From Bugula neritina (taxonomy: Eukaryota > Bryozoa > Gymnolaemata > Cheilostomatida > Bugulidae): a stretch of DNA of 64,000 bases. Under the pieces are notes generated by a model. It saw only the letters and a list, made by a program, of their open reading frames with translations. It searched no databases and was not told where the DNA came from. Position numbers and translations under genes: made by a program. Where the stretch lies: assembly GCA_964035545.1 (NCBI GenBank), contig OZ037769.1:15099133-15163132 (forward strand), in the 5' to 3' direction. How positions within the stretch are numbered: the first letter of the stretch is position 1; every line of letters starts with the position of its first letter. Of the stretch, positions 29,868 to 59,067 are shown piece by piece.

Positions 29868-30387
29868 ACTTCGTGGGTTTCAGAAAAGTAAGAATTGGTA
29901 CGGCCATCAAGCAGAATAAGTACTGGAAAATGATAATGTGAAAACCTTGTAAGATTTTAACATACACACTGACGTAGTCATCAAAGTTAGGAGACCCGAT
30001 ATATTAGTAGTTGACAAGCATAATGCTGAAACAACGATAATTGATATAACAGTCCCTGTTAACTACAGAGTAAAAGAAAAAAATTCGAAAAGTTAGGGAA
30101 ATATCAGAATTTAGCACTAGAATAAACCCGCCTTTGGAAAACATCAAAAAAGTCATCCCGTTGTAACTGGAGCCTTTGGAGCTTTATACAAGATTGTAGA
30201 CTGGCTGACACTACTTGGAGTAGCTGAGAACAAATGCTCATTAATTCAGCAGACACCCTTACTAGGATCAGGATAAGCTCACATCCTGAGGAAAGTTCTA
30301 TCCATTTCAGCCTAGTATAACTAGGCCAATGGTAAAAGGTTACACCAGCTAAAAAACTACGGTCAATCAACAATAATAATAATAATA

Positions 30388-31491: not shown

Positions 31492-31523
<32 letters not shown>

Positions 31524-33402
31524 ATAGTACTGTTACTACTACTACTACTACTAGTACTACTACTAGGTCTACTACTGTACCAGTACAACTACAAACTTTG
31601 AAAATAACTGCAAGAAAGGTATGACTTACTCTTTTTCTTAGTCTTACTGTGACTCTCAGTCGTAATGTAAAATAAAATTGTGAACTGTAAAGTTAAACCC
31701 AAGGCTGAAATTTATTTAATTAAATTTAGACAATCTGAATCATTGGCTCAATCCTTGAGTTTGACTATTACTATTATTATTAGTGCTACGATTGCGATTA
31801 TCATTGGCATTATGCCATTATGATTATCATTATGATTGTAATTGTGGTAATTCTAACATTAATTATAATCATAAATTAAAAGGTAATGATTAATGATAAT
31901 TATTTTCATTTTGTAATCATAATGATAATCATAATGATGTAAATTTTGATGTAAAACCAAAATACTAAAACTAAAAGTAAAAGTTATAAAATTAAATGAT
32001 AAAATATTATAATGATAATTATTATATTTATTATATTATTATTGAATATATTATTTCATTAGAAAATAGGTTGCAGCTTAGCATGATTAAAATTCAGTAA
32101 AAATTAGTTTACCAACAGCAAACATGCATGCGTCTTGTCAACATTCAATTCGTAGTGTCATAGCGAAGCCAGATTACTGGTAGTACGACTACTAGAACTA
32201 CTACTACTAGTGATGGATTACAGATCCTTGGCGATTTTAGCTGTGAGTGACCTTCACCTCACATTCTCGTCATGTGCGCGGCATTAGACTAAGTAGAGGG
32301 TATGAAGCACTGAGCTGGAAAAGAAAGAATATATTTTAATTATAGGTAATACTAATAGTAATATAATTTATGGTAATATATAGGTAATATTATTGAGTTC
32401 ATTGGTATGGAGTATAGACCTATCACTGATAGTATCAGTATCAACTACCACTTACGTACTACTTCAACTTATAACTTACCTTCAACTCAAACTCAAACTG
32501 AAACTGCTTGGAATCATTTGTCTTTGATCATATTGGCATTGTCATTGTGATTGTAATAACTATTAATATTTTTAGTTCAACATCAATGCCGAACATATTG
32601 TAATAACTAATAAGATAATCATAAGGTTGATATATTTTGCTAATACTAATACTAATACTAATAGTTATAGTAATAGTTATAGTAATTCAGTGTCACTCTC
32701 ACTCTGGTGGAGTGAGACTCAGACTTAGAGTTAGAGACAGAGTGAGTCCGAGTAAGTCTGAGTGTTGGTAATAGTAATAGTCATATAAATTTAAATTATA
32801 TTTACTTATTTCTAGCAATCACAATGGCAATAGTTGTAGTAACTTTCACTTACTCTTAAATCATTGAACCTGAACTAAAAGTAAAATTAAGCATTATGAT
32901 TATCATTATGATTATACCTATGATTTTATTATGTTTAAATTAAAAATCAATATCATGATAATATCATAGTGATAGACATATTATTGATAAATGATAATAT
33001 AAAAGTAATTTGATAAATTATACATTGATTTTGAATTAAGGTGATACTGATACTAGACCGGTACTGAAAGTGATAGTAATACTAATAGTAATAGTAATAG
33101 TCATATAAATTTAAGTTATATTTACTCATTACCGGCAATCACAATGGCAATAGTAACTTAAACTGTAACAGTAATGGTATGGGTATGTTTGAAATTGTCA
33201 CTATCAGTATTGCTATGAATCAAAATATAATGCTATCATACCAATAATTTAAAATAATATTACAAAGCTTCAGTAGCAACTTTTACTTGTACCAGTTTGG
33301 AATTTTGAATTATACATATTCTTAGTTAAAGTCTTCAAGTTTATTGTCAAAATGAACTTGAAATTAAAGACTTAGTAGTAAAAATTAAACTAAGACTGAC
33401 TG
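30388..33402. other. Low-complexity, gene-free DNA (copy A)
   Basis: Three kilobases built largely from short motifs such as TAGTAATAG, ATTATGATTATC, TAAGTATAAATA and ACTAGTACT, with frequent local reverse complements. No coding frame is credible. The Ser-rich minus-strand frame at 31391-31588 is a product of an (ACT)n tract. Copy B repeats this DNA at 53211-53804 and 59063-61471. Confidence 0.8.
31432..31580. repeat. (ACT/AGT)n microsatellite cluster, copy A
   Basis: Dense ACTACT and ACTAGT repeats, self-complementary in places because ACTAGT is palindromic. The copy-B cluster (59517-59653) is shorter by two triplets, as expected of slippage after duplication. Confidence 0.9.
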
Positions 33403-35965
33403 CACAGTTAGTTTAAGGTCATTACTTTCCAGATTCAAGCACTGCTTTATGTTATATATAAACGGTTTCCAGGGGATAGCTCGAACAGTTTTTGTCTCAC
33501 ATTAACAAATTTTACATGAAAAGATAGCTCTTGCATTCCTCTTTCATATACTTTTTTAATTTTTCAATAAAAAATTTTCTGAGAAAGTTGTTGCATAATA
33601 AGTAAAATTTTACACCCTCCATGTTCCACTGCTGTAGCACAGGGGATTCATTTTATAAAGTCTAAAAGTTAAACTTGACATTCCTTGATATGTTTTCTCT
33701 AATATACTTTCTTTGTTTTTTAAAATTCTGTTTATGCTCTTCACAATTTGGTAAAAACATACACCATTTTGCAAGTTTCACTGCAATTTTCTAAATTCTT
33801 CATATGGTGGTTCTAGCTACGCTCCTGTGACTAATTATAACATTCCTAGTACGTTTGCCGCTCTGCGCTATCACAATAACATATAGTACCCTCTCGCACA
33901 AATTGGCAATCTATTGGATTTCTGCCAATATAATGTTCCCTGTTTTACATTAGCGCTTAGCTGAATCATCTCACTATGTTACAATAATATATTGAAAATG
34001 CCTCAGCACAACATAATTCTTTGTTTGTTTGGCAGAGTTAATTTCAGCTAAATCACTTCACTTTGCAGTCTTGTCAGTAAAGGTCTGTCTATAGCCCAGC
34101 AGGTGTACTTTCAGTTTCTCTAATTCGCATATGATTATTTTAAGTACATTGTATTCTATAAGATCAATTTAAGGTTTAGTCCAGTGTTCAGTATCTAATT
34201 ATTATGCATGTATGTTGTCTTACTGTTGAACAAAAGTTAAAAAAAAACTTTACAATTATAGCCATATTTATTATACATGCGTAGGATTTGCATAAGTTGA
34301 CAAAAAAAATTGCAACAAAACAGGATTGAACCATGACCAACCAAATTCTCGCTGACGCCTCTAACCTCTGGACCACGCATTCATCGTTAATGAAACGCGC
34401 ACTATATGAGTAACTATCATTACATAAATATTTCGCGCGCAAATGGGTTATAATTATTAGGCTGATAGCAGTCAACTGTTGCAATAGTCTCAGGTTACTA
34501 GCAAAGCTAATGGTTTTGAACAAATAACCCAAAAGTTTAAAAAATAAGTAGCTTGCGTATTGCTAGCTACAAAAACAACTCTGAAATAGACTGGTAAAGC
34601 AAGCTCTTATTGTAGAGTTTGCAGATGTGCTCTAAAATAAAACTTAAACTGTATGCTATTACATAAGTATTTGTATGCGAGAGATAAATGGACATTACTG
34701 AGTTTCTGGAAAACAACATACTTGAAGTTAACTTTGACAATGGTGTGTTATTTTCATCATACACTAGCACAGATAGGGCCTATAGCATAAATCTCTAATC
34801 ATATGAATCTTTATGAAGCCCACAGCTCATGTAAGGGTGGCAAATGTAATTTGAAACTAAAAATTGTGTTGCTGCATTGTGTCTAAGGTATATTAGAGAG
34901 CAGAATTTGGTTTTACTAGCCTACCCCAACGGCATTCTACAATGCAGCTTATATGCTGGCAGTTGTAATAAGTACTGTCAATAGCAAGGTTACTATCACT
35001 GCTAGCTCTGTGCAGTATGTAACCTCTTGAATAATTGCGCCAATTTTAAACTCTTGGAAGTTGGCCAAGTTATCATATCGCAGCCAGCCACCGGAGACAA
35101 AGCATCAGAGCTATTCATATAATACTGATGCACTCGGTAGCAGAGTGGCTAATCTAATATAGTTCATAGTTCAACACCCTTTACTTTGGGAATACAGCCT
35201 CTTTTTTTAGGTTTACCTTACAAAGCATGAACATATCTAAACTGATATTCTGATAATTTAGAGGTACATTTTGAAAACTAGGTTAATTGCACTTGTTTGC
35301 ACAACAACAATAATAAAATAGATATTATGCAGTATAATAAAAACACACATAATACTATATAATATATTATAATGATAATAATATAATATTATAAGTACCA
35401 TTACTGCATTTTATAAATCACATGGTTGCCAAAAAAATGTATCACAAATTTTGTAATTATACATCAAAAATAGAACTATAGCTAGGCAGCAGGTTAGAAT
35501 AGAGTAAATTTTTAAAACATAAAATCATGATTTGACTATTGTTTTATTTAGGCCAACCAACCTAGGAATACAAGATTGGGTTTTAGCTGACAGTTTATAA
35601 CATTTAGCTTTTGAGCCAGCAGCACTGGCACTTGTGAAGTATAGGCAAAGTTAGTGAAGCGAGACTAACTATAGCACTCAAATACAAGGCATATTGAGAC
35701 GCGATAACAAGTCAGGAGCGTATAAATTGAAAAGAATGTGGAAGGGGGACTATGTTTTTCAACAAGCTATAACTTAAACATGAATTGGTTTTTGAAAAAA
35801 ATAAAAAAGTATATTGGAGAACATAAGTTTCTTTATCTTTTCATATTTTTTTTGTTCCTGTGACATTCAACCTGTTCGAGCTATCAGTGGAACATTGTTC
35901 ATATAGAACATAAAGCACCTGGCAAAGAGCCAGAAAATGAAAAGTGTGACCTTAAACTAACTGTG
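33403..35965. mobile_element. DNA transposon, 2,563 bp, CACAG...CTGTG ends, absent from copy B
   Basis: Copy B has the uninterrupted text GACTGACTGTAAGTGAC (TG at 61472-61473). Here the TG is duplicated (33401-33402 and 35966-35967) around an insert starting CACAGTTAGTTTAAGGTCA, with the reverse complement of that at its right end. Inverted-repeat similarity continues with gaps for about 150-200 bp (shared TGCTTTATGTT, GATAGCTCGAACAG and ATACTTTTTTA). No transposase is encoded. CACNN ends with a 2-bp duplication recall the CACTA/EnSpm group, but this is tentative. A 1.4-kb repeat with a tRNA-like core lies inside. Confidence 0.88.
34221..35609. repeat. 1.4-kb dispersed repeat, copy 2 (inside the DNA transposon)
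   Basis: Direct match to 1-1413, ending after the shared text GTTTATAACATTTAGC. The minus-strand tRNA-like core lies at 34321-34395: box A TGGTCCAGAGG (plus 34365-34375) and box B GGTTCAATCC (plus 34323-34332). Confidence 0.85.
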
Positions 35966-36778
35966 TGTAAGTGACTAAGATTAAAAATAAGTAATTTTAA
36001 ATATCGATTTAGTATTTTTCTTACTCTTTGTCTTAAAATTGACTTTTATTTTGCACCTACTTCTGGTCAATGATTCTTTTTTCTATTTATATTACTATTG
36101 CTATTAGTATAATTGACTTAAATTTAATAATAGATATGATTATATCTTTATAAATGTGATATTTGATTTTATGAATAGTAATTCGAAAACTCTTTGGTAT
36201 TATTTATTTTTGATCATTGTAGTTATTATCATTATATTTGTATAATAATTATGATTATCAAATTCAATATCGATATTTGTATTATGGTATGGATATCTGC
36301 CTCCATCCCATGTTCTGTTTTGCAGTGCCTTTTTACATTCACGTCTAGCTTCACATTGCGATGGTCATACTGATAGCACTTGGGGACAGTGATGAGCATA
36401 ATGATTATCACTAATATTAGGATTATCGTTATTAGGATTTAGAATAATTTAATAAACAAGCAACTTAAAACAAATGTTTTTACTAATATACATAATAATT
36501 ACTAATATAAATATACTACTATGAATATTATAATTATTATACTTTACAATTCAAAGTAAGATAATCATAATACGAACTGGTAAAACTAAATATAAAGTAA
36601 ATGTAATAATACTAATAGTAGTTATCCATTCCCCTTTGGTTTCACATACTAATAATTGGAAACCTCTGTCCTAATATTATTTCTATTAATATTGCTCAAA
36701 GTTTGATCCCTATTTAATTTTATAGTTCACTCACCAGCTACATAATTTTATTAAAATACATGTGGTATTGGTTATAGT
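35966..36778. other. Low-complexity, gene-free DNA between two insertions (copy A)
   Basis: Matches 61472-62284 of copy B. No coding frame. The last five bases (36774-36778) are ATAGT, the target duplication of LTR element 1. Confidence 0.8.
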
Positions 36779-37129
36779 TTAGTAATTTGTTCAATTACTG
36801 AGCGTGAGTTATTTACTTGCGTATAGTTAGCTGGTTATTCTGTTATCAATTACTAAGGTAGCTGTCGAGTAATTATATTTATTATCCACAATAAAGCATA
36901 AACCAAACATCACATCAAATTATCCTATACAAGAGTCAACTACTAACACATGTTACTACTACAAGCCTCCGCTTACAACAACGTGATATAATGTTAATAA
37001 CCCGGGAAGTGTCACGTGACTCGGAAGCATATCTTCCGGAGCTGCTAATTGGTTGCTACATAAGAGTCTAAGTATTCCAAGAGTAGGGAGAGGGCGATTC
37101 CTGTATTTGTACTTGCACTACTCACTACA
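36779..37129 (-). repeat. 3' LTR of element 1
   Basis: About 352 bp. On the minus strand it begins TGTAGTGAG and ends AATTACTAA. The terminal CA is damaged: plus-strand TT-AG instead of TGTAG, one base lost. It contains the palindrome GTCACGTGAC at 37011-37020. Confidence 0.93.
36878..36883 (-). terminator. Poly(A) signal AATAAA in the 3' LTR of element 1
   Basis: AATAAA on the minus strand, in the right half of the LTR as transcribed. Position and sequence suit polyadenylation of the element's RNA. The same hexamer lies in the 5' LTR at 41790-41795. Confidence 0.4.
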
Positions 37130-37140
37130 CCGTCCCCCCC
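37130..37140 (-). promoter_or_regulatory. Polypurine tract next to the 3' LTR of element 1
   Basis: The minus strand reads GGGGGGGACGG directly before the LTR's TGTAGTG. This is where a plus-strand primer is expected in LTR elements. It is unchanged in element 2 (54157-54167). Confidence 0.6.
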
Positions 37141-37420
37141 AGCAGAAAGCCCTACTTTCTGATAACACAATAAAAAAACATAATGAAAAACCATACAATA
37201 ATCCAAAAAGGAAAATATACATAAGTAAACCCACAAAGAGTAAGAAAAGAAATAGTTAAACACGACAACATTTACATTAGAAGACAACAGGGTGATCGAT
37301 CACACACATCTAGTCAGCTATTAAGAGAGAGGGTGCTTACCAGCACGCGGGCCAATGTCGGAGCGCTCGTCACATTCCAAACGAGCTATAGCTCAACGAA
37401 GGTGCCTACCCCAGGCATTC

Positions 37421-38473
37421 TCATTGGTTGGACTCTGCTTCTTGTAGCGACCGTGCTCTGTGTCGAGCCTGTCGGGCCCGTAGCCGCCTCTTCAGTCGCC
37501 CTACTGAGTCCTTCAACTGGTATAGACCTGTCGTCGTATCCAGCAAGTCAGGGGCAAGTTGTGTGAACTCGGCTTGCAGTCTTAGAAGCCGCTCTTCTAC
37601 GTTAGCCAGCTGGCTAGGCCTTGGTGGGGTTATAGGGGTCTCCGTTAGACGGGATATGGTTGTTTCTTCTACTTCTGGGGTGTTGCTAGGGTTGACGGGG
37701 GTAGGAGGTGGGCCCTGAACCATAGGGGACTTATGGCGGGCAGATAGTAACAGTACGTGAAACCCTGACGTTAGTGCGGCCAGGGTAATAGCCTTCCTGA
37801 TGACTGGCTTGATGGCATCCAGGTATAGGGGGAAACTGTCTTCATCAACAGTGTGGTTCTCTCCGGCGAAGCAGCTTAGCTTATGTACTGTCACGGGATA
37901 TGGGTAGACGTCGTGGAACCCGCAGGGACAGAAGTGGAGTAGGAAATGGGCGTCTACATGTAAACGCAGGGAGCGGTGCGACGGGCACTCCTCAAAGCAG
38001 ACCTGGCAGGTTTGGTGTGGTCCACTGGGTCCCCAGGCTTCTTCAATTCTCCTCTCTGTCGTGGGTGACACCCAACGGTGTCGTCGGCGGAGTACTACTG
38101 GTATGCCATTCTCCATTACAGGCTCTTCTTCCATAGACAGAGAGGTTGGCTGGTCCCGTGACCGGGAGGTGGTCACTCGAGTGTGATCTGAAAGAGTAGC
38201 AGTGTTAAAGATTATACACTGAGACACCGTCGGCGTGTACAGCCTGATCGGTACTCTGTTCAGTTACACTCGTGAGATTCAGGCTAATGAATAGTTGATG
38301 GAGAACACACTCGCTATGACAGATTATTTAAAATCAAAGTCGACGTGTATTCCCACCACTGTTTATCATTATCGAATCTCCAGCTAGCTAGTGTAGCTAA
38401 GCTGACTGATGCAGTCTAGTTATCGTACCAAAAACATAATTAACTCACCCTTCGATCCAGAATAGTAAGACAT
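37421..38473 (-). CDS. Element 1 ORF3: spliced zinc-finger/coiled-coil accessory protein
   Basis: Exon 2 (38187-37421) encodes about 255 residues. In an unspliced 268-residue numbering from 38227, a C2H2 finger lies at C74, C77, H90, H94 and a second Cys/His cluster at C100, C102, H115, C119. A hydrophobic segment follows (about 145-160), then a Pro/Thr linker and a basic coiled coil (about 206-264). A 25-nt exon 1 (38473-38449; ATG plus 8 codons plus one base) has donor G|GTGAGT, and exon 2 has acceptor TACTCTTTCAG. The 261-bp intron removal joins them in frame. The exon-1 ATG is 24 nt past the ORF2 stop. Retroviral env genes occupy this place, but there is no signal peptide here; a nucleic-acid-binding role is more likely. 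Function unknown. Confidence 0.7.
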
Positions 38474-38496
38474 TTTGGAATGAGAGTGGTAACTGA

Positions 38497-40857
38497 TTAC
38501 TGTTTACTGGCACGTCTACTCTCGACTGCATCAACATAGGAAAAGACCGGACAGCGTGGTTGTGAAACGTGACTAGGGCTTTTTACTTCCAGCGGATGAA
38601 TCTCGTGTGAGATTCCGCCGAGGCAAAAGTTGAGATTCTCGTGGTGATCACAACTCCCACGGCTCTTTGCCTGTTTTCCCATGCGAGGCCTCTCTAGACT
38701 TTTGTTACTGCCGCTTATACCGCGGTCACGTACACAGTCTCTGAGACACGCTGGAAGTTGCCTAGTGTGTGGTCCTGGTCCTATGTTGGTATCTCCTTGC
38801 GGAGCCCCTTCCACGGGGGATTTTTGCACTTCCGGACCGGTTTCTGGTTCCGGAAGTGGTGATGATGGCAGGCTTGACGTTGAGGGCGGTGAGCGCACTT
38901 TCAAGGACGGAAGTGGCCTTTCTCGCCTCGCCAAGTCTTCCTGACGTGTCATGGAGGTGTTTCCCGCCAGGTTGACAGTCTCCGCCTGCCGAGACCTTCT
39001 CGCACAATGCGTCTGCCGCCCCACTTCACCAGGGAGACGGCTATGCTTGTTGGTCTGGCAGACTTTGCACCGTCTCACTCTGCGTCGGATATCCCGTTCC
39101 ATGTTAGGCCAGTACCACCGGAGTTGTAGCTTGGTGACCACCCCTTGGACTCCTCCGTGAGTCTCCTCGTGGGTGTCTTGTATCAACTTCCGGCGGATGG
39201 CAACTGGGCAGACAACCCTCTTCCTGGCTGGCTGTCTGCTGTTGGCGGCCAAGGTCATGGTTAGCAGACCCTCTGGCCCGACCCGCAGAGAGCTCCAACG
39301 TTGACAGTACAGCCGTAACTCGGCGCATCCCTGTCGCCGTTGTGTACTACTGGGTCGTCGCCCCTCCTGTTTCGCTCGGTACACGTCGGCTACCACCCCA
39401 GGAAGGCATTCCTGGAGCTTCGGCAGCTCCCTAACGTTACCAGCCCATACAGGTTTGGCGCGGAGGCTCTGGGCAGCCTCCGGGGGCGTGTCAGCCCTCT
39501 GTTGGAGTGGCTGAGCAGGGGCGGTCCTCGCCGCCCGTGGTACCTCACGGCAGCCTGCTCTATTTAGGCGGGCTCCGTGGTCTGTGTGGCTTAACGCCTC
39601 ACTGTACCCATGTGGCAACCTAGCCATAGCCTGGCGCTTCCCGTTGCCTGTGCAGCCACGCGTCCCTGGAGGAGGGGAGGCGTGGGTTGGGACGGTCCTC
39701 CGCCCTCGAGACGGGCTCTGCTGAGGACCTTCCGTCGTAGCTCCCGACGACGGCCCAATGGCTTCCTCCTGGACAGGATGGAAGCGACCCAGCATGGATC
39801 TGGGTGGTAGGTCTACTGTCTCTGAGAAGGGGTTGACACACTGCACTGAGATCTCTCCTTGCCCCGTGAGCCGGCTAAAACTACGGGCAAGTTGGACTCT
39901 CGAGTGCGTACTTTCGACAACTCCCAGCTTAGAGGTTTGGCCACCGTCTACCTTGCAGCGGACGGTAGCCCGGGAGTGGCCTGGTATAGTACAGCTCCGT
40001 ACTACCTGCACTGCTCCCGCTAGAGGACGACCAAACTTATCGACACAAGCGAGCTCCTTGTCGCCCATGATTATCGCAGATTTACTGAAATCGATGCGAC
40101 AACCGTGTCGTTGTAAGAATGGCATCCCGAGGATAGCATCCTCGTTGAGCTGCCCGACGATAAACGTCTCTTGGATGGCCTGGTTACGGACGTAACCAGT
40201 TAGCTCAATAATGCCGTAGAAGGGGATGCACGACCCGTCTGCCAGGGTGCCATGATCCCCCTCATACGGTGCCAACCCGTCCTTGACCTTAGCGCTGAGG
40301 GTGTCAAAGAACTGACGGCTAAGGAGGTTGGTGGTGCAGCCGGAGTCCAGGAGGAAGTTGGCAGGCTTGCCGGCTAGCTTCCCTGGTAGGAAGTAGCTAC
40401 TTCCGTGCGGCTGCAATTGAGTGTGCCGTGGTTGCACCTCCCTCGCTGTGGGTCGAGGGGTCCACGGTTGGCGGCGACTATTGACCAGCTGCCGAGGTTG
40501 GGGCGGTACGCCTTGCGGCGCTTGTACCGTTTCCCTCGCAGGCTCTGTGGTCAACCGTCTGCCGGCTCCGTGTTGGTGCCAGAGTGGCGTAGAGGACCCA
40601 GGCGGCGAGTGGCTTGAGCCTACTTGCCGCGGGGGTCGCCACTTCACAGCATCTCCGCGCGGCGCCCAGCGGGGCGACAGACGCGCGGGCCTCCCTGGGT
40701 GATTCACAGACGGCCCGCAGGAGGTGGGAACATCTGCGGGCCGGGGTAGTTTAACCCTGGTGGGAGTTGAGGGCAGTTTCTCTGGAAATGTCCTGGCCTT
40801 CCGCATTCCCAGCAGAAGTGGTGCCCCATGCCTGGTGATTGTACCTGCGGCCCGCAA
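38497..40857 (-). CDS. Element 1 ORF2: retropepsin plus integrase H2C2 zinc domain, no RT
   Basis: 786 codons without a stop. Residues 1-60 overlap gag in another frame. An aspartic protease follows, with catalytic DSG at 171-173 (DTG is more usual) and ILGMPF at 242-247. The N-terminal zinc domain of a gypsy integrase is at H563, H567, C597, C600 (H-x3-H-x29-C-x2-C). Between them, where RT and RNase H belong, there is only a Pro/Arg/Gln-rich linker with remnants of the pre-RT segment (about 360-450). No F/YxDD motif and no D,D-35-E core is present. The tail is Pro/Ser-rich. Expression probably needs a -1 frameshift from gag. The protease could still mature gag. Confidence 0.85.
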   Translation of the reverse strand: MRAAGTITRHGAPLLLGMRKARTFPEKLPSTPTRVKLPRPADVPTSCGPSVNHPGRPARLSPRWAPRGDAVKWRPPRQVGSSHSPPGSSTPLWHQHGAGRRLTTEPARETVQAPQGVPPQPRQLVNSRRQPWTPRPTAREVQPRHTQLQPHGSSYFLPGKLAGKPANFLLDSGCTTNLLSRQFFDTLSAKVKDGLAPYEGDHGTLADGSCIPFYGIIELTGYVRNQAIQETFIVGQLNEDAILGMPFLQRHGCRIDFSKSAIIMGDKELACVDKFGRPLAGAVQVVRSCTIPGHSRATVRCKVDGGQTSKLGVVESTHSRVQLARSFSRLTGQGEISVQCVNPFSETVDLPPRSMLGRFHPVQEEAIGPSSGATTEGPQQSPSRGRRTVPTHASPPPGTRGCTGNGKRQAMARLPHGYSEALSHTDHGARLNRAGCREVPRAARTAPAQPLQQRADTPPEAAQSLRAKPVWAGNVRELPKLQECLPGVVADVYRAKQEGRRPSSTQRRQGCAELRLYCQRWSSLRVGPEGLLTMTLAANSRQPARKRVVCPVAIRRKLIQDTHEETHGGVQGVVTKLQLRWYWPNMERDIRRRVRRCKVCQTNKHSRLPGEVGRQTHCARRSRQAETVNLAGNTSMTRQEDLARRERPLPSLKVRSPPSTSSLPSSPLPEPETGPEVQKSPVEGAPQGDTNIGPGPHTRQLPACLRDCVRDRGISGSNKSLERPRMGKQAKSRGSCDHHENLNFCLGGISHEIHPLEVKSPSHVSQPRCPVFSYVDAVESRRASKQ

Positions 40858-41654
40858 GGCTCACGGGCAGTATCTACCTGGCTTGGGGAGGCTAGTGTGG
40901 TGACCAGTTTATCTAGCATGTCAGTCATCTGTGAGATTTTTGACGCTAGTGACATCTGGTTCACACTAGCCACCGCGGAGGGTTCCGCATTTAATTCGGT
41001 GTGAGCAGTAGAGTGCTCCGTGGTCACCTGGCGGGAGGCCACGCGGTTGCGGTGCATATGAGTCGCCAAGAGATAGGCTTCTCCCACCGCAAGTGCATCT
41101 TCGACTGTGGTGACTCCCCTCGCTTGGAGTTGATGGTGGAGCCCCAAGTCGTTGATGGACTGCACGAAGGCATCATAGGTATACCTCTCACGGTGTACCG
41201 GAGGCAGATCGCGGAATGCAATCTGCGCTAATGGGTACACCGTGGCAGCGTGCTCTTCTAGTGACGTGTGAGGATCACGCCGCATCCTCTGTAGACGGGC
41301 CCGCGCATCTATGGGAGAGATGCCAAAACGGGCCCGCAGGGAAGCAAAGATTCCGTCTATGTCAGGTCCAGCTCCGTACGGCTTAGCTTTGCCCGTCAGC
41401 GCCATCCTGAGCTTCAGCAACGCCACCCTTGGCGGGCATTCTGCAATCTCCATCACATCCTGGAATTCTTGGATGAACTGCTCCACTGCTTCTTCGCCGG
41501 TGAAGTTGGGTGCCTTCAGCCGGTATCTATCTTCACCATGCTCTCTAAGAATTCTCACTTCTTCATCGAACACCACTGGTTCCACAGGTATATCAACATT
41601 ATCTCTCTCACCTTCATTCAGTGGAATGGGTAGCTCCGTGCCGTCTTCTGCCAT
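40704..41654 (-). CDS. Element 1 gag-like capsid/nucleocapsid protein
   Basis: ATG at 41654 (first residues MAEDGTELPIPL), 316 codons. The region open further upstream uses a TTG and is not needed. The N-terminal two thirds is helical and gag-like, with FTGEEAVEQFIQEFQDVM and a Leu/Arg-rich middle, as in Ty3/gypsy capsids. A zinc knuckle CWECGRPGHFQRNC (C-x2-C-x4-H-x4-C) precedes a short Pro-rich end. It would form the particle and bind element RNA. It is open in both elements with few differences. Confidence 0.88.
   Translation of the reverse strand: MAEDGTELPIPLNEGERDNVDIPVEPVVFDEEVRILREHGEDRYRLKAPNFTGEEAVEQFIQEFQDVMEIAECPPRVALLKLRMALTGKAKPYGAGPDIDGIFASLRARFGISPIDARARLQRMRRDPHTSLEEHAATVYPLAQIAFRDLPPVHRERYTYDAFVQSINDLGLHHQLQARGVTTVEDALAVGEAYLLATHMHRNRVASRQVTTEHSTAHTELNAEPSAVASVNQMSLASKISQMTDMLDKLVTTLASPSQVDTAREPCGPQVQSPGMGHHFCWECGRPGHFQRNCPQLPPGLNYPGPQMFPPPAGRL
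40749..40755 (-). promoter_or_regulatory. Candidate -1 ribosomal frameshift site GTTAAAC, element 1
   Basis: The minus strand reads G TTA AAC in the gag frame, inside the 154-nt overlap of gag with ORF2. ORF2 is in the -1 frame relative to gag. GTTAAAC is a known slippery heptamer (arteriviruses use it). Position and phase fit; a downstream pseudoknot was not verified. It is unchanged in element 2 at 57770-57776. Confidence 0.45.
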
Positions 41655-41671
41655 GACTGCTATACGCAAGA

Positions 41672-41688
41672 TCCCACCGCTGCCACCA
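41672..41688 (-). promoter_or_regulatory. Primer binding site (tRNA-Leu), element 1
   Basis: The plus strand reads TCCCACCGCTGCCACCA, identical to the 3' end (with CCA) typical of animal tRNA-Leu, one base from the LTR. The minus-strand RNA would therefore pair with tRNA-Leu to prime reverse transcription. Confidence 0.8.
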
Positions 41689-41689
41689 C

Positions 41690-42041
41690 TGTAGTAATTT
41701 GTTCAATTACTGAGCGTGAGTTATTTACTTGCGTATAGTTAGCTGGTTATTCTGTTATCAATTACTAAGGTAGCTGTCGAGTAATTATATTTATTATCCA
41801 CAATAAAGCATAAACCAAACATCACATCAAATTATCCTATACAAGAGTCAACTACTAACACATGTTACTACTACAAGCCTCCGCTTACAACAACGTGATA
41901 TAATGTTAATAACCCGGGAAGTGTCACGTGACTCGGAAGCATATCTTCTGGAGCTGCTAATTGGTTGCTACATAAGAGTCTAAGTATTCCAAGAGTAGGG
42001 AGAGGGCGATTCCTGTATTTGTACTTGCACTACTCACTACA
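41690..42041 (-). repeat. 5' LTR of element 1
   Basis: 352 bp with intact TG...CA ends. It differs from its partner in the terminal dinucleotide and at one CCGG/CTGG site near 41949. GTCACGTGAC at 41923-41932 may act as a promoter element. The promoter start site cannot be read. Confidence 0.95.
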
Positions 42042-43178
42042 ATAGTACTAGTGAAACTTGAAGTTGAATAGCATGCTTATTACTCACTGCTCTTTGCTTA
42101 CATTATTAGGGTTACTCTTTAGTCTTAGAGGTACCCTAACATAAACTTGAAAGCTGGAGGTAGTACTAGTCTAGTGCTGTGTTAATCCTACACCGTTGAC
42201 TTATCAACACTGTGACTATAATTATGACTCCTAAGTCAAAGTCATTTTCATATAGTAGTAATCACTATGACAGACTGAAAGTCAGGAAGACTAAATATAA
42301 TGGTAAAGTGTGTAAGAATAAATCATACTCAATCAATTACTTTTAGTTTTATTACCAGTGTTGGGTCAACTTTCAGAATAAAGAATAAATATAATTATAA
42401 AGATAAATGGATAAAAATTCCAATCATGGTTTAATGTGCCTATTTTAAGCTGTTAATTTAATTACTATAATATAAGTGCTCAAAATACAACTTTTGTTTT
42501 TCATAATTATGTTTTAATTTAATACAGATACCATAGTATCATATACAGTAGAATCAGTTGTATCTTATTTAATAATGAAGTAACTTATTGGAGCTTTCAC
42601 AATTATTAATTATTTACTTGTTAGTCTTTGAACTGGGACAATGTTTGAAACTTGAAGTAGAATGAAGTTTGATTTCAGTTACCGCAATGGTATCTGCAGT
42701 CACAATAGGAATACGCATATAACTATGTTTATATTTGTGAAAAATATATAGTCAAAAGTAGATAAGGTAATAGTAATTATAATTGGTTTCACTTTTAATA
42801 TATTCCTATAAACTGGAAAATAGACAGAAGCATTTAATCATGAAAGTAAACCTAGTGGAAGTAAATCAATTCACTAAGTATAGTAAAATATTTACTATTC
42901 AGTAAGTTTATTTACTTTAGTTAATTGTACTTGATTATTTCTGTCGGTTTTTCAGTTGATTTTTCTACCTTTTGCTATAGCATATCAAACTACCACAAAG
43001 TCATGCTTCCGTATTACAATTATAAACATAGTGTTACTGTGTAATGTTATAGTAATGTAATAGTAATATTTGGATCATTGTAAGTATTTCTGTTGTTGTA
43101 CTGATTGATAAATATTTTTTAGCTTGCATGGATATTTGCAACGATCAAGATGTCATTTGAACCTGGACTGGAATAAAG
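42042..43178. other. Gene-free AT-rich DNA (copy A)
   Basis: Begins with ATAGT, the right target duplication of element 1. It matches 62280-63416 of copy B. No coding frame was recognised. Confidence 0.6.
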
Positions 43179-44323
43179 ATGGCAAATCGAGAAGCTAGGT
43201 ACAATTATTCTGCAGAAAGAAACTTGGTAAGCAAAAATAAGCTGCAGCATTAAGCCGTAAGCAATATGACGATGAACTTTGCTTGATTTTGATTGACCTT
43301 AAAATATCTGGTCACCTTTCACCAACGTGGTCCTGCGCGGGTGGCGGGTGACCTTAAAATGTCTGTTGCACGTAAAATAAATTTTGTGACAGTCAAAAGT
43401 ATGCTGATCTTTTTCGTATTTCAGTGCATCGGTGTCTTAGCTTAAGAGCTGAACCCAACAATTATGATCTAAAGCTGTTTTTACTAGAAAGTGATTTTAC
43501 TGTCTTTCTGATTATTCTTGGTTTTTCAGCTTGATGAATTGAATAAATGGATTTGATTTCGGGTATTATGTAATGGATGAAAGAAATTTTTCTTAAATTT
43601 GTACTGAGCAATTTTTGCTATTGCTATGATGTTTAGTGATAAAATTGCACCCTTAATAACCCTGAAAATTATCATTACTAGCATTTGTTTATGTTCATTT
43701 TTAGGAAATTAAAATGAAGACACAACTCACCGATGCTATCTCACTGTGCCTGCATGCAGTTTATCTAAAAAGGTACTCCTATTAGCTGGCTCTTGCCCAA
43801 TACCTGGTTGTCTCTGTAACTATTTCTTGCTCGCAGATGAGTTTTTTGAACTTGACATTTTATTGATTTTGAAAGTTATAGTGAGCTTTGAAGTTGCTAG
43901 CATCGTTTTTAAAGACTTGCTGCAGTTTTTATCAACATTTTTTAAGTCAATGGTGTTAGTTTGGAAGCTCTCTCACTCCCCTCTCTGTCTCTTTCTCCCA
44001 CACCTTCCACTCAACCTCTCTCTCTTTCTCCCCCTCTCTCCCACCCTCCCTCTCTCCCACCCTCCCTCTCTCCCACCTTCTCCCTCTCCTAACCTTTCTC
44101 TCTTCCCTTTTCCGCTATCTCTCTGACTCTCTCCCTTTCTCTATTCTACCCCATCTCTCTTCCATCCTCTCTCCTAACCTTTCTCTCCCACCCCCCCATC
44201 TCCCACTCTCTTTCTCTCTCTAGTTTGCATGGCTTTACCGAATTTTGGTTTATTTTTTTATTTTGTTTCAGAGTATCCAAAAGGAAAGCTAAAATTTATT
44301 TAATATATATTATACCAACTTGA
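43179..44323 (+). CDS. Candidate three-exon small gene (copy A), weak
   Basis: ATG at 43179 (context AAAGATGG) opens 16 codons (MANREARYNYSAERNL) to donor TTG|GTAAGC (43226/43227). After acceptor TTTTTAG, exon 2 (43705-43772) reads EIKMKTQLTDAISLCLHAVY and ends at AAAAAG|GTACTC in phase 2. A possible exon 3 (44272-44323) after acceptor TTTTGTTTCAG closes with TGA, and AATAAA follows at 44342. The product would be about 55 residues. Copy B keeps exons 1 and 2 (63417-63464, 63944 on) with one Arg-to-Ser change. No family recognised, and chance is not excluded. Confidence 0.3.
43968..44222. repeat. Polypyrimidine (CT-rich) tract, about 250 bp
   Basis: Almost pure C and T on the plus strand, built from CTCTCT, CCCTC and CCACCC variants. 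The Pro/Leu/Ser frame through it is an artefact. Long homopurine-homopyrimidine DNA can form triplexes. It lies in the inferred intron before exon 3 of the candidate small gene. Confidence 0.95.
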
Positions 44324-53804: not shown

Positions 53805-54156
53805 TGTAGTAATTTGTGCAATTACTGAGCGTGAGTTATTTACTTGCGTATAGTTAGCTGGTTATTCTGTTATCAATTACTAGGGTAGCTGTCGAGTAAT
53901 TATATTTATTATCCACAATAAAGCATAAACCAAACATCACATCAAATTATCCTATACAAGAGTCAACTACTAACACATGTTACTACTACAAGCCTCCGCT
54001 TACAACAACGTGATATAATCTTAATAACCCGGGAAGTGTCACGTGACTCGGAAGCATATCTTCCGGAGCTGCTAATTGGTTGCTACATAAGAGTCTAAGT
54101 ATTCCAAGAATAGGGAGAGGGCGATTCCTGTATTTGTACTTGCACTACTCACCACA
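53805..54156 (-). repeat. 3' LTR of element 2
   Basis: 352 bp with TG...CA ends and GTCACGTGAC at 54038-54047. The adjacent purine tract is at 54157-54167. Confidence 0.95.
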
Positions 54157-54446
54157 CCGTCCCCCCCAGCAGAAAGCCCTACTTTCTGATAACACAATAA
54201 AAAACATAATGAAAAACCATACAATAATCCAAAAAGGAAAATATACATAAGTACACCCACAAAGAGTAAGAAAAGAAATAGTTAAACACGACAACGTTTA
54301 CATTAGAAGACAACAGGGTGATCGATCACACACATCTAGTCAGCTATTAAGAGAGAGGGTGCTTACCAGCACGCGGGCCAATGTCGGAGCGCTCGTCACA
54401 TCCTAAACGAGCTATAGCTCAACGAAGGTGCCTACCCCAGGCATTC

Positions 54447-55494
54447 TCATTGGTTGGACTCTGCTTCTTGTAGCGACCGTGCTCTGTGTCGAGCCTGTCG
54501 GGCCCGTAGCCGCCTCTTCAGTCGTCCCACTGAGTCCTTCAACTGGTATAGACCTGTCGTCGTATCCAGCAAGTCAGGGGCAAGTTGTGTGAACTCGGCT
54601 TGCAGTCTTAGAAGCCGCTCTTCTACGTTAGCCAGCTGGCTAGGTCTTGGTGGGGTTATAGGGGTCTCCGTTATACGGGATATGGTTGTTTTTTCTACTT
54701 CTGGGGTGTTGCTAGGGTTGACGGGAGTAGGAGGTGGGCCCTGAACCATAGGGGACTTATGGCGGGCAGATAGTAACAGTACGTGAAACCCTGACGTTAG
54801 TGCGGCCAGGGTAATAGCCTTCCTGATGACTGGCTTGATGGCATCCAGGTATAGGGGGAAACTGTCTTCATCAACAGTGTGGTTCTCTCCGGCGAAGCAG
54901 CTTAGCTTATGTACTGTCACGGGATACGGGTAGACGTCGTGGAACCCGCAGGGACAGAAGTGGAGTAGGAAATGGGCATCCACATGTAAACGCAAGGAGC
55001 GGTGTGACGGGCACTCCTCAAAGCAGACCTGGCAGGTTCGGTGTGGTCCACTGGGTCCCCAGGCTTCTTCAATTTTCCTCTCTGTCGTGGGTGACACCCA
55101 ACGGTGTCGTCGGCGGAGTACTACTGGTATGCCATTCTCCATTACAGGCTCTTCTTCCATAGACAGAGAGGTTGGCTGGTCCCGTGACCGGGAGGTGGTC
55201 ACTCGAGTGTGATCTGAAAGAGTAGCAGTGTTAAAGATTATACACTGAGACACCGTCGGCGTGTACAGCCTGACCGGTACTCTGTTCAGTTACACTCGTG
55301 AGATTCAGGCTAATGAATAGTTGATGGAGAACACACTCGCTATGACAGATTATTTAAAATCAAAGTCGACGTGTATTCCCACCACTGTTTATCATTATCG
55401 AATCTCCAGCTAGCTAGTGTAGCTGACTGATGCAGTCTAGTTATCGTACCAAAAACATAATTAACTCACCCTTCGATCCAGAATAGTAAGACAT
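54447..55494 (-). CDS. Element 2 ORF3: spliced zinc-finger/coiled-coil accessory protein
   Basis: Exon 1 55494-55470, exon 2 55213-54447. Donor, acceptor, phase and all eight zinc ligands are conserved with element 1. Amino-acid differences are few (for example Gln to Arg just before the first finger, Leu to Ile in the linker). Preservation of an intron-containing reading frame in two separate insertions argues that the spliced form is real. Confidence 0.7.
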
Positions 55495-55517
55495 TTTGGA
55501 ATGAAAGTGGTATCTGA

Positions 55518-57878
55518 TTACTGTTTACTGGCACGTCTACTCTCGACTGCATCAACATAGGAAAAGACCGGACAGCGTGGTTGTGAAACGTGACTAGGGC
55601 TTTTCACTTCCAGCGGATGAATCTCGCGTGAGATTCCGCCGAGGCAAAAGTTGAGATTCTCGTGGTGATCACAACTCCCACGGCTCTTTGCCTGTTTTCC
55701 CATGCGAGGCCTCTCTAGACTTTTGTTACTGCCGCTTATACCGCGGTCACGTACACAGTCTCTGAGACACGCTGGAAGTTGCCTAGTGTGTGGTGCTGGT
55801 CCTATGTTGGCATCTCCTTGCGGAGCCCCTCCCACGGGGGGTTTTTGCACTTCCGGACCTGTTTCTGGTTCCGGAAGTGGTGATGATGGCAGGCTTGACG
55901 TTGGGGGCAGTGGGCGCACTTTCAAGGACGGAAGTGGCCTTTCTCGCCTCGCCAAGTCTTCCTGACGTGTCATGGAGGTGTTTCCGGCCAGGTTGACAGT
56001 CTCCGCCTGCTGAGACCTTCTCGCACAATGCGTCTGCCGCCCCGCTTCACCAGGGAGACGGCTATGCTTGTTGGTCTGGCAGACTTTGCACCGTCTCACT
56101 CTGCGTCGGATATCCCGTTCCATGTTAGGCCAGTACCACCGGAGTTGTAACTTGGTGACCACCCCTTGGACTCCTCCGTGAGTCTCCTCGTGAGTGTCTT
56201 GTATCAACTTCCGGCGGATGGCAACTGGGCAGACAACCCTCTTCCTGGTGGGCTGTCTGCTGTTGGTGGCCAAGGTCATGGTTAGCAGACCATCTGGCCC
56301 GACCCGCAGAGAGCTCCAACGTTGACAGTACAGCCGTAACTCGGCGCATCCCTGTCGCCGTTGTGTACTACTGGGTCGTCGCCCCTCCTGTTTCGCTCGG
56401 TACACGTCGGCTACCACCCCAGGAAGGCATTCCTGGAGCTTCGGCAGCTCCCTAACGTTACCAGCCCATACAGGTTTGGCGCGGAGGCTCTGGGCAGCCT
56501 CCGGGGGCGTGTCAGCCCTCTGTTGAAGTGGCTGAGCAGGGGCGGTCCTCGCCGCCCGTGGTACCTCACGGCAGCCTGCTCTATTTAGGCGGGCTCCGTG
56601 GTTTGTGTGGCTGAACGCCTCACTGTACCCATGTGGCAACCTAGCCATAGCCTGGCGCTTCCCGTTGCCTGTGCAGCCACGCGTCCCTGAAGGAGGGGAG
56701 GCGTGGGTTGGGACGGTCTTCCGCCCTCGAGACGGGCTCTGCTGAGGACCTTCCGTCGTAGCTCCCGACGACGGCCCAATGGCTTCCTCCTGGACAGGAT
56801 GGAAGCGACCCAGCATGGATCTGGGTGGTAGGTCTACTGTCTCTGAGGAGGGGTTGACACACTGCACTGAGATCTCTCCTTGCCCCGTGAGCCGGCTAAA
56901 ACTACGGGCAAGTTGGACTCTCGAGTGCGTACTTTCGACAACTCCCAACTTAGAGGTTTGGCCACCGTCTACCTTGCAGCGGACGGTAGCCCGGGAGTGG
57001 CCTGGCATAGTACAGCTCCGTACTACCTGCACTGCTCCCGCTAGAGGACGACCAAACTTATCGACACAAGCGAGCTCCTCGTCGCCCATGATTATCGCAG
57101 ATTTACTGAAATCGATGCGACAACCGTGTCGTTGTAAGAATGGCATCCCGAGGATAGCATCCTCGTTGAGCTGCCCGACGATAAACGTCTCTTGGATGGC
57201 CTGGTTACGGACGTAACCAGTTAGCTCAATAATGCCGTAGAAGGGAATGCACGACCCGTCTGCCAAGGTGCCATGATCCCCCTCGTACGGTGCCAACCTG
57301 TCCTTGACCTTAGCGCTGAGGGTGTCAAAGAACTGACGGCTAAGGAGGTTGGTGGTGCAGCCGGAGTCCAGAAGGAAGTTGGCAGGCTTGCCGGCTAACT
57401 TCCCTGGCAGGAAGTAGCTACTTCCGTGCGGCTGCAATTGAGTGTGCCGTGGTTGCACCTCCCTCGCTGTGGGTCGAGGGGTCCACGGTTGGCGGCGACT
57501 ATTGACCAGCTGCCGAGGTTGGGGCGGTACGCCTTGCGGCGCCTGTACCGTTTCCCTCGCAGGCTCTGTGGTCAACCGTCTGCCGGTTCCGTGTTGGTGC
57601 CGGAGTGGCGTAGAGGACCCAGGTGGCGAGTGGCTGAAGCCTACTTGCCGCGGGGGTCGCCACTTCACAGCGTCTCCGCGCGGCGCCCAGCGGGGCGACA
57701 GACGCGCGGGCCTCCCTGGGTGATTTACAGACGGCCCGCAGGAGGTGGGAACATCTGCGGGCCGGGGTAGTTTAACCCTGGTGGGAGTTGAGGGCAGTTT
57801 CTCTGGAAATGTCCTGGCCTTCCGCATTCCCAGCAGAAGTGGTGCCCCATGCCTGGTGATTGTACCTGCGGCCCGCAA
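55518..57878 (-). CDS. Element 2 ORF2: retropepsin plus integrase H2C2 zinc domain, no RT
   Basis: Also exactly 786 codons and uninterrupted, with the same missing RT, RNase H and integrase core and the same linker boundaries. The deletion was therefore present in the common source and was not lost separately. DSG, ILGMPF and the H-x3-H-x29-C-x2-C zinc ligands are all kept. Confidence 0.85.
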   Translation of the reverse strand: MRAAGTITRHGAPLLLGMRKARTFPEKLPSTPTRVKLPRPADVPTSCGPSVNHPGRPARLSPRWAPRGDAVKWRPPRQVGFSHSPPGSSTPLRHQHGTGRRLTTEPARETVQAPQGVPPQPRQLVNSRRQPWTPRPTAREVQPRHTQLQPHGSSYFLPGKLAGKPANFLLDSGCTTNLLSRQFFDTLSAKVKDRLAPYEGDHGTLADGSCIPFYGIIELTGYVRNQAIQETFIVGQLNEDAILGMPFLQRHGCRIDFSKSAIIMGDEELACVDKFGRPLAGAVQVVRSCTMPGHSRATVRCKVDGGQTSKLGVVESTHSRVQLARSFSRLTGQGEISVQCVNPSSETVDLPPRSMLGRFHPVQEEAIGPSSGATTEGPQQSPSRGRKTVPTHASPPSGTRGCTGNGKRQAMARLPHGYSEAFSHTNHGARLNRAGCREVPRAARTAPAQPLQQRADTPPEAAQSLRAKPVWAGNVRELPKLQECLPGVVADVYRAKQEGRRPSSTQRRQGCAELRLYCQRWSSLRVGPDGLLTMTLATNSRQPTRKRVVCPVAIRRKLIQDTHEETHGGVQGVVTKLQLRWYWPNMERDIRRRVRRCKVCQTNKHSRLPGEAGRQTHCARRSQQAETVNLAGNTSMTRQEDLARRERPLPSLKVRPLPPTSSLPSSPLPEPETGPEVQKPPVGGAPQGDANIGPAPHTRQLPACLRDCVRDRGISGSNKSLERPRMGKQAKSRGSCDHHENLNFCLGGISREIHPLEVKSPSHVSQPRCPVFSYVDAVESRRASKQ

Positions 57879-58675
57879 GGCTCACGGGCAGTATCTACCT
57901 GGCTTGGGGAGGCTAATGTGGTGACCAGTTTATCTAGCATGTCAGTCATCTGTGAGATTTTTGACTCTAGTGACATCTGGTTCACACTAGCCACCGCGGA
58001 GGGTTCCGCATTTAATTCGGTGTGAGCAGTAGAGTGCTCCGTGGCCACCTGGCGGGAGGCCACGCGGTTGCGGTGCATATGAGTCGCCAAGAGATAGGCT
58101 TCTCCCACCGCAAGTGCATCTTCGACTGTGGTGACTCCCCTCGCTTGGAGTTGATGGTGGAGTCCCAAGTCGTTGATGGACTGCACGAAGGCATCATAGG
58201 TATACCTCTCACGGTGTACCGGAGGCAGATCGCGGAATGCAATCTGCGCTAGTGGGTACACCGTGGCAGCGTGCTCTTCTAGTGACGTGTGAGGATCACG
58301 CCGCATCCTCTGTAGACGGGCCCGCGCATCTATGGGAGAGATGCCAAAACGGGCCCGCAGGGAAGCAAAGATTCCGTCTATGTCAGGTCCAGCTCCGTAC
58401 GGCTTAGCTTTGCCCGTCAGCGCCATCCTGAGCTTTAGCAACGCCACCCTTGGCGGCCATTCTGCAATCTCCATCACATCCTGGAATTCTTGGATGAACT
58501 GCTCCACTGCTTCTTCGCCAGTGAAGTTGGGCGCCTTCAGCCGATATCTATTTTCACCATGCTCTCTAAGAATTCTCACTTCTTCATCTAACACCACTGG
58601 TTCCACAGGTATATCAACATTATCTCTCTCACCTTCATTCAGTGGAATGGGTAGCTCCGTGCCGTCTTCTGCCAT
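57725..58675 (-). CDS. Element 2 gag-like protein
   Basis: 316 codons from ATG 58675. The zinc knuckle is unchanged. A few substitutions against element 1 include Cys to Trp in the helical part (AEWPPR) and Ala to Glu near MSLESK. It overlaps ORF2 as in element 1. Confidence 0.88.
   Translation of the reverse strand: MAEDGTELPIPLNEGERDNVDIPVEPVVLDEEVRILREHGENRYRLKAPNFTGEEAVEQFIQEFQDVMEIAEWPPRVALLKLRMALTGKAKPYGAGPDIDGIFASLRARFGISPIDARARLQRMRRDPHTSLEEHAATVYPLAQIAFRDLPPVHRERYTYDAFVQSINDLGLHHQLQARGVTTVEDALAVGEAYLLATHMHRNRVASRQVATEHSTAHTELNAEPSAVASVNQMSLESKISQMTDMLDKLVTTLASPSQVDTAREPCGPQVQSPGMGHHFCWECGRPGHFQRNCPQLPPGLNYPGPQMFPPPAGRL
57770..57776 (-). promoter_or_regulatory. Candidate -1 frameshift site GTTAAAC, element 2
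   Basis: Same heptamer and same phase as in element 1, within the gag/ORF2 overlap. Confidence 0.45.
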
Positions 58676-58692
58676 GACTGCTATACGCAAGA

Positions 58693-58709
58693 TCCCACCG
58701 CTGCCACCA
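58693..58709 (-). promoter_or_regulatory. Primer binding site (tRNA-Leu), element 2
   Basis: The plus strand reads TCCCACCGCTGCCACCA, one base from the LTR at 58711. It is identical to the site in element 1. Confidence 0.8.
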
Positions 58710-58710
58710 C

Positions 58711-59062
58711 TGTAGTAATTTGTGCAATTACTGAGCGTGAGTTATTTACTTGCGTATAGTTAGCTGGTTATTCTGTTATCAATTACTAGGGTAGCTGTCG
58801 AGTAATTATATTTATTATCCACAATAAAGCATAAACCAAACATCACATCAAATTATCCTATACAAGAGTCAACTACTAACACATGTTACTACTACAAGCC
58901 TCCGCTTACAACAACGTGATATAATCTTAATAACCCGGGAAGTGTCACGTGACTCGGAAGCATATCTTCCGGAGCTGCTAATTGGTTGCTACATAAGAGT
59001 CTAAGTATTCCAAGAATAGGGAGAGGGCGATTCCTGTATTTGTACTTGCACTACTCACCACA
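58711..59062 (-). repeat. 5' LTR of element 2
   Basis: 352 bp, apparently identical to 53805-54156. GTCACGTGAC lies at 58944-58953. Confidence 0.95.
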
Positions 59063-59067
59063 ATTAG

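What the first reader, a model, noticed from the sequence alone, without database searches (positions are those of the whole stretch)
37421..38473. Spliced third ORF with two zinc fingers in an LTR retrotransposon
A 25-nt ATG exon with consensus donor joins in frame across a 261-bp intron to an ORF with C2H2 and C-x-C-x12-H-x3-C fingers and a basic coiled coil. All elements of the model are kept in both insertions. A spliced accessory DNA- or RNA-binding protein in the env position would be unusual for a gypsy-type element and could control targeting or host silencing.
Basis: partly seen in the sequence, partly recalled or inferred. Interest (0 to 1): 0.8.

Follow-up and report, generated by a model that had tools for sequence, protein, structure and literature searches.

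The report
Spliced regulator gene in a retrotransposon
A jumping element in an unnamed eukaryote's genome carries a third gene whose messenger RNA really is spliced, as shown by naturally intron-less copies in the same genome, and the removed intron is itself a conserved folded RNA, which suggests an HIV-Rev-like switch for handling the element's full-length RNA.

Summary
ORF3 (window 38473-37421, minus strand) is a spliced, selected gene of a Ty3/gypsy-type element. At least five separate insertions in the host genome, across three families, lack exactly the predicted intron (five of the junction places were seen only as pattern matches). A further natural copy (L036) is a 1.8-kb LTR element in which the first 43 nt of gag are joined to ORF3 exon 2 at the same acceptor: a subgenomic, env- or CERV-like message for Gag(1-14)-ORF3. 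Complete relatives with gag and full pol also carry ORF3; dN/dS is 0.05-0.25 in the 12 of 18 pairs where computable. The two window copies lack RT, RNase H and integrase core, yet in their family ORF3 and protease are the most constrained genes. The intron is a conserved folded RNA (z -9.0 against column shuffles; eight other segments +1.1 to -2.6), absent from both spliced forms. Best reading: ORF3 is a zinc-finger, arginine-rich-tail protein acting like Cer1 CERV or HIV Rev on unspliced RNA, with the intron as cis element. Splicing, selection and fold are shown; RNA binding and export are inferred. No transcript data were available.

The parts
38449..38473 (-). ORF3 exon 1 (25 nt: ATG + 7 codons + 1 nt)
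   Evidence: Sequence; 1 mod 3 in the 21 of 34 stretches where the expression found it (25 or 22 nt); joined to exon 2 in natural copies
38188..38448 (-). Intron, GTGAGT...CTTTCAG, conserved folded RNA
   Evidence: Absent from L031, L032, L015/L016; alone z -4.07; alignment z -9.0, SCI 1.16
37421..38187 (-). ORF3 exon 2: C2H2 finger, C-x-C-x12-H-x3-C finger, helical middle, long C-terminal helix with Arg-rich end, stop
41612..41654 (-). gag start = alternative first exon (43 nt, ATG..GAATGAAG), followed by donor GTGAGA at 41611
   Evidence: Donor kept in winA, L018, L022, L023, L025; joined to exon 2 in natural copy L036; same fusion in metagenome protein P0018
40704..41654 (-). gag with CCHC knuckle
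   Evidence: dN/dS 0.18-0.31 in family
38497..40860 (-). Remnant pol frame: protease and integrase H2C2 finger; RT, RNase H and integrase core deleted
41690..42041 (-). 5' LTR, copy A (352 bp)
36778..37129 (-). 3' LTR, copy A
41670..41688 (-). Primer binding site TGGTGGCAGCGGTGGGATC (tRNA-Leu type is recalled, not tested)
55470..55494 (-). ORF3 exon 1, copy B
55214..55469 (-). Intron, copy B (256 nt)
54447..55213 (-). ORF3 exon 2, copy B
53805..59062 (-). Whole copy B, LTR to LTR (LTRs 352/352 identical)

Best explanation
ORF3 is a spliced regulatory gene of a Ty3/gypsy-type lineage. One acceptor is served by two donors: the 25-nt exon just behind pol, and the gag start. The second choice gives a subgenomic RNA encoding Gag(1-14)-ORF3. 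The protein has a double zinc finger, a helical (perhaps self-associating) region and an arginine-rich tail. I propose that it enters the nucleus and binds unspliced genomic RNA, most likely through the folded 261-nt intron that is missing from its own mRNAs, and so secures its export, stability or escape from splicing. That would work like HIV Rev on its response element, or like CERV in Cer1. Shown: both splice junctions as reverse-transcribed natural copies, reading frame, purifying selection, conserved intron fold, and retention in RT-less copies. Inferred: nuclear site, self-association, RNA binding, the intron as target, and export as the step controlled.
For: Intron-less natural copies: L031 and L032 lack winA 4753-5013 with no other large gap in the aligned part; the 5' end of L032 is a run of N. 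Each is nearest to intron-bearing copies rather than to the other (L031 with L007, support 0.994; L032 with L003/L004 by distance). L031 has identical LTRs (352/352) and ATAG on both sides. L015/L016 are one older intron-less insertion, duplicated with its flank. Junctions also match at 4 places in the L023 family and 1 in the L018 family, not read further. Subgenomic copy L036: LTR, PBS, 43 nt of gag, exon 2, LTR, with one open frame. dN/dS of ORF3: 0.05-0.16 in 10 of 12 computable pairs, 0.20 and 0.25 in the other two, 6 further pairs saturated; 0.07-0.19 in 11 comparisons within the RT-less family. Intron fold: E -88.9 versus -47.2 +/- 4.6 in 100 shuffles, eight other segments z +1.1 to -2.6; 17 pairs with changes on both sides versus 9.0 +/- 2.6, reached by 2 of 300 shuffles; 672/741 cells paired, 31-46% when slid. 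Between the winA and L023 families the intron is more alike (0.66) than exon 2 (0.51-0.57) or the 3' UTR (0.48).
Against: No RNA, protein or binding data. C2H2 fingers more often bind DNA. No export signal was demonstrated. Part of the fold pairs the two splice sites, so it may only tune splicing. Intron-less copies did transpose, so the intron is not absolutely required in cis. Single introns are less striking than the alignment (z -0.8 to -3.8 for 8 introns). The pol-tail segments just upstream also lean to structure (z -2.4, -2.6), and the near pol tail (0.68) and a gag segment (0.71) are as alike between those families as the intron, so the intron's conservation alone is not exceptional. 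The AlphaFold model is mediocre (pLDDT 64) and fold searches gave no convincing relative.
Confidence: 0.47

Rival explanations
1. ORF3 is a DNA-binding factor made from the subgenomic RNA: it activates the element's LTR (as Tas or Tax do in retroviruses, recalled) or tethers integration complexes to chosen chromatin. The intron fold is a separate splicing or RNA feature.
Confidence: 0.2
2. ORF3 is a particle or packaging factor that selects genomic RNA for assembly (nucleocapsid helper), with the intron as a packaging signal placed so that spliced RNAs lack it.
For: The intron is present only in full-length RNA. Copies without it are few: 3 insertions found in the winA superfamily against 95 places matching the exon-1 donor with up to 2 mismatches. 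gag, PR and ORF3 are the genes kept in RT-less copies.
Against: Intron-less and subgenomic RNAs were nevertheless packaged, copied and inserted. Gag already has its own CCHC knuckle.
Confidence: 0.15
3. The folded intron only regulates splicing (keeps both splice sites in a helix so that most RNA stays unspliced), and ORF3 does something unrelated.
For: Predicted pairs join alignment columns 2-5 with 272-275, i.e. donor and acceptor.
Against: Those four pairs do not covary. The covarying pairs lie in inner stems away from the splice sites.
Confidence: 0.12
4. ORF3 is a divergent envelope or membrane fusion protein.
For: Position behind pol, and a subgenomic RNA lacking gag and pol, as for env in errantiviruses (PMC4276936, passages).
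Against: Both possible N-termini are short and polar, without a signal peptide by eye; no Pfam envelope match; two conserved zinc fingers and an arginine-rich tail. No membrane predictor was run.
Confidence: 0.02

Closest known systems
CERV of Cer1 (C. elegans Ty3/gypsy element; PMC10309623, abstract and sections 6, 9, 15; PMC3315495, passages)
   Same: Spliced accessory protein of a gypsy-type element whose message shares the start of Gag; Cys-rich possible finger; the element needs unspliced RNA exported.
   Different: CERV is 517 aa from 5 exons, with H, M and G domains; its possible C4-type finger differs from the C2H2 plus C-C-H-C pair here. No conserved folded intron is described in the parts I read. 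Sequence comparison was not made.
HIV Rev and its response element; MPMV constitutive transport element (PMC11599104, passages)
   Same: Protein made from spliced RNA (PMC3315495, passages); arginine-rich helical tail (recalled for Rev); structured RNA kept in unspliced RNA.
   Different: No homology shown; zinc fingers absent from Rev (recalled); the structured RNA here is the whole short intron next to the gene.
Errantivirus env (Drosophila gypsy; PMC4276936, passages)
   Same: Third ORF behind pol, made from a spliced subgenomic RNA lacking gag and pol.
   Different: Errantivirus Env is a membrane glycoprotein; ORF3 looks like a zinc-finger protein.
sORF1/sORF2 of Drosophila MDG1-group elements (PMC11952523, abstract and one section)
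   Same: Accessory ORFs with signs of selection in LTR retrotransposons; sORF1 is subnuclear.
   Different: Upstream of gag, about 110 and 70 aa, transcripts not spliced.
Retand TRP28 ORFs of plants (PMC11963269, abstract)
   Same: Extra ORF between pol and 3' LTR, predicted to bind DNA; some members of the lineage are non-autonomous.
   Different: Antisense, different domain, no splicing described in the abstract.

Membership tests
Ty3/gypsy-type LTR retrotransposon | LTRs, tRNA-type primer site, polypurine tract, short target duplication | tested here: met
Ty3/gypsy-type LTR retrotransposon | pol order PR-RT-RNaseH-IN in the lineage | tested here: met
   Autonomous relative L023. Not met in the window copies themselves, which lack RT, RNase H and IN core
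Ty3/gypsy-type LTR retrotransposon | RT phylogeny within a named clade | not tested
   No reference RT set at hand
Spliced accessory gene of an LTR element | Precise intron removal in nature | tested here: met
CERV family | Message shares Gag N-terminus | tested here: met
   L036 and P0018
CERV family | Sequence homology or shared H, M, G domains | not tested
CERV family | Required for export of genomic RNA | not testable with these tools
Rev/RRE-like system | Conserved structured RNA confined to unspliced RNA | tested here: met
Rev/RRE-like system | Protein binds that RNA and an export receptor | not testable with these tools
Rev/RRE-like system | Known Rfam element | tested here: inconclusive
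   No Rfam match up to E 1 in window 36700-42100
Errantivirus Env | Membrane glycoprotein with signal and transmembrane parts | tested here: inconclusive
   No Pfam envelope match; no membrane predictor run

The most novel reading that the evidence does not exclude
A Rev/RRE-like two-part system arose separately in gypsy-type elements. A zinc-finger, arginine-tail protein, made only from spliced RNA, licenses the unspliced genome through a folded intron that its own mRNA lacks. RT-less parasitic copies keep both halves because the system works in cis, and so show which functions cannot be borrowed.
Probability: 0.39. Interest if true: 0.88.

Novelty: new variant of a known kind. Interest (0 to 1): 0.74.

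Why it matters
How simple LTR elements get intron-containing genomic RNA out of the nucleus is known for few of them (from general knowledge). Here a protein family without named relatives in my searches and a folded intron are coupled in one gene, in several families of one genome, with protein relatives on metagenome contigs. RT-less copies that still select for ORF3, protease and gag, but less for the integrase leftovers, separate functions that the element must bring itself from those it can borrow. The genome also shows that splicing can be demonstrated without RNA data, from reverse-transcribed spliced copies.

Tried and rejected

Novelty searches: (ten listings, each showing only its top rows); I saw in them no spliced zinc-finger third ORF of this kind in an LTR element. 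Most subscription papers are not held, and Repbase/GyDB were not available. Papers seen: PMC10309623 (abstract, sections 6, 9, 15), PMC3315495, PMC4276936 and PMC11599104 (passages), PMC11952523 (abstract, section 7), PMC11963269 (abstract); all others as listings only.

Full report
What is there. The window lies in a 215.8-Mb assembly of an unnamed organism with introns and retrotransposons. Two LTR elements lie on the minus strand, at about 36778-42041 and 53805-59062, 98.2% identical, with LTRs of 350-352 bp that are 99.7% and 100% identical. They sit in two arms of a duplicated segment (98.4-98.9% identical), and each is absent from the other arm. Their short target duplications differ. 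They are therefore independent insertions.

The elements are non-autonomous. The long frame behind gag holds a protease and the H2C2 finger of integrase, but Pfam finds no RT, RNase H or integrase core in it. Against the complete relative L025, two blocks are missing. L023, L024 and L025 have gag (328-330 aa), a pol frame of 1481-1557 aa, ORF3, and LTRs that are 99.7-100% identical; Pfam finds PR, RT, RNase H, H2C2 and integrase core in L023, the one scanned. The integrase-core deletion aligns through its joint between L027 (winA superfamily) and L018, so it looks shared and old. The RT deletion overlaps, but its ends differ by up to about 100 nt, so common origin is likely but not shown.

ORF3 is a gene. 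A search of the assembly scored 138 matches of 927 first-look candidates. Homologues outside: 106 proteins by single-sequence search, and 166 (120 listed) by profile search that scored the best 7,996 candidates; no listed row has a given name or a Pfam domain. Of 18 ORF3 pairs compared, 12 gave a dN/dS: 0.05-0.16 in 10, 0.20 and 0.25 in two L018-family pairs; in the 6 most distant pairs synonymous sites are saturated. In the RT-less family, comparing winA with 11 other copies: ORF3 0.07-0.19 (11 copies), protease part 0.05-0.25 (10), gag 0.18-0.31 (10, partial in L011 and L028), H2C2 part 0.32-0.99 (11), pol tail 0.29-1.17 (11). ORF3 is the lowest in 6 of the 10 copies with all parts, protease in the other 4. 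The young pairs rest on few changes, and some copies have stops in gag, PR or H2C2. So copies that have lost RT and integrase still select for ORF3, protease and gag.

Splicing, form a. Exon 1 is 25 nt in the winA and L022-L026 families and 22 nt in the L018 family, always 1 mod 3 where found. A regular expression found an intron in 27 of 35 stretches, 256-272 nt long; L001, L002 and L006 duplicate winA, L009 and L010. Of the 8 without, L015, L016, L031, L032 and L036 lack it by splicing, L034 has a larger deletion across it, and L012 and L013 align through it but escaped the expression. The exon-1 donor pattern (up to 2 mismatches) occurs at 95 places (control 2), and the acceptor pattern at 122, which include L018-family sites at 2 mismatches (control 0). 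A pattern allowing 0-8 bases between the two exon ends hit two places, both with zero bases between, control 0. These are L031 and L032: both are intact around the joint and lack winA 4753-5013 with no other large gap; L031 is complete from LTR to LTR, while the 5' end of L032 is a run of N. In a tree of 21 sequences L031 pairs with intron-bearing L007 (support 0.994), and L032 is nearest by distance to intron-bearing L003 and L004, so they are two events. L015/L016 are a third, older insertion, duplicated later with host flank. The same joint matches at 4 places in the L023 family and 1 place in the L018 family, control 0 each; I did not read those five loci. That is at least five events in three families.

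Splicing, form b. One metagenome protein of the 131 homologues looked at, P0018, starts with Gag residues and continues at once with ORF3 exon 2; its DNA was not seen. The gag start of winA, L018, L022, L023 and L025 carries GAAG|GTGAG (after 43 nt in winA); L027 reads GAAA|GTGAG. A 15-base junction pattern found one place (control also 1, so the pattern alone is not evidence). That place, L036, is a 1.8-kb element: LTR, primer site, 43 nt of gag, exon 2 of ORF3, 3' UTR, LTR. The joint lies at the gag donor and ORF3 acceptor positions of L018, and the frame is open from the gag ATG to the normal stop. Its LTRs are 98.6% alike and no clear target duplication was seen. I read it as a reverse-transcribed subgenomic message. 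Which of the two forms makes most protein is unknown. Form a leaves the exon-1 ATG far from the cap, so form b is the easier message to translate; but the exon-1 ATG and phase are kept in all three families.

The intron is a folded RNA. Nine introns less than 96% identical (of 27) gave an RNAalifold energy of -88.9 against -47.2 +/- 4.6 in 100 column shuffles, z -9.0, SCI 1.16. Eight other segments of about 260 nt from the same copies gave z from +1.1 to -2.6, the two pol-tail segments being the lowest. In a separate run, 0 of 300 shuffles reached the energy, and 17 pairs with changes on both sides were reached by 2 of 300. Sliding the partner by 1-3 columns drops pairing from 91% to 31-46% and strict compensatory pairs from 11 to 0-3. 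The winA intron alone has z -4.07 with 0 of 200 shuffles as good; eight single introns range from -0.8 to -3.8. The nine rows are related, so counts are not independent events. Between the winA and L023 families the intron (0.66) is more alike than exon 2 or the 3' UTR, but not more than the near pol tail (0.68) or a gag segment (0.71). No Rfam match.

The protein. Fingers C-x2-C-x12-H-x3-H and C-x-C-x12-H-x3(4)-C are kept in 49-55 of 52-55 rows per ligand. The AlphaFold model has mean pLDDT 64; residues 21-90 (fingers included), 111-150 and 231-255 are its better parts, and the first half of the long C-terminal helix is weak. The tail LKRRLRARQARHRAR is arginine-rich. No solved or viral fold matches convincingly.

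Mechanism. Cer1 CERV shows that a gypsy-type element can need a protein from a spliced message, sharing the Gag start, to export its unspliced RNA (PMC10309623, sections 6, 9 and 15; PMC3315495, passages). Here the arrangement is alike, with one addition: the stretch removed by both splice events is the short intron, and it is the tested segment with the strong conserved fold. The simplest account is a Rev-like loop: spliced RNA makes ORF3; ORF3 marks RNAs that still carry the intron; these leave the nucleus as genomic RNA and as gag-pol message. Selection on ORF3 in RT-less copies fits a cis-preferring function. Against it stands that intron-less and subgenomic RNAs were also copied and inserted, so the intron helps at most. 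DNA-binding and packaging roles remain open.

Verdict. Observation confirmed; interpretation improved. A protein family without named relatives in my searches, and a new arrangement of a known strategy.

Noticed in passing
window 25340-43761 vs 48170-64000: Duplicated segment (98.4-98.9% identical) with one element insertion in each arm and an empty site in the other: segmental duplication or two haplotypes assembled in tandem.
   Followed up: partly
winA against L027, L028, L011-L014: Synonymous divergence of ORF3 is about 1.4-2.6 times that of gag and protease in the same copies; unexplained (recombination, or synonymous constraint upstream).
   Followed up: no
L023:8789-9274, L024, L026: A 162-164 aa frame overlaps the end of ORF3 in three complete-length relatives, but none of 130 aa or more is there in L025; the L023 one has no Pfam match.
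   Followed up: partly
window 12598-14048 (-): Frames that look by eye like a non-LTR reverse transcriptase.
   Followed up: no
window 1845-3390 and 15449-18285 (-): Two partly duplicated gene pieces (85.7% identical over 1.5 kb), one with TPR-like repeats by eye.
   Followed up: no
L024, L025 pol versus L023: The pol frame ends earlier in L024 and L025 (1481 and 1485 aa) than in L023 (1557 aa).
   Followed up: no
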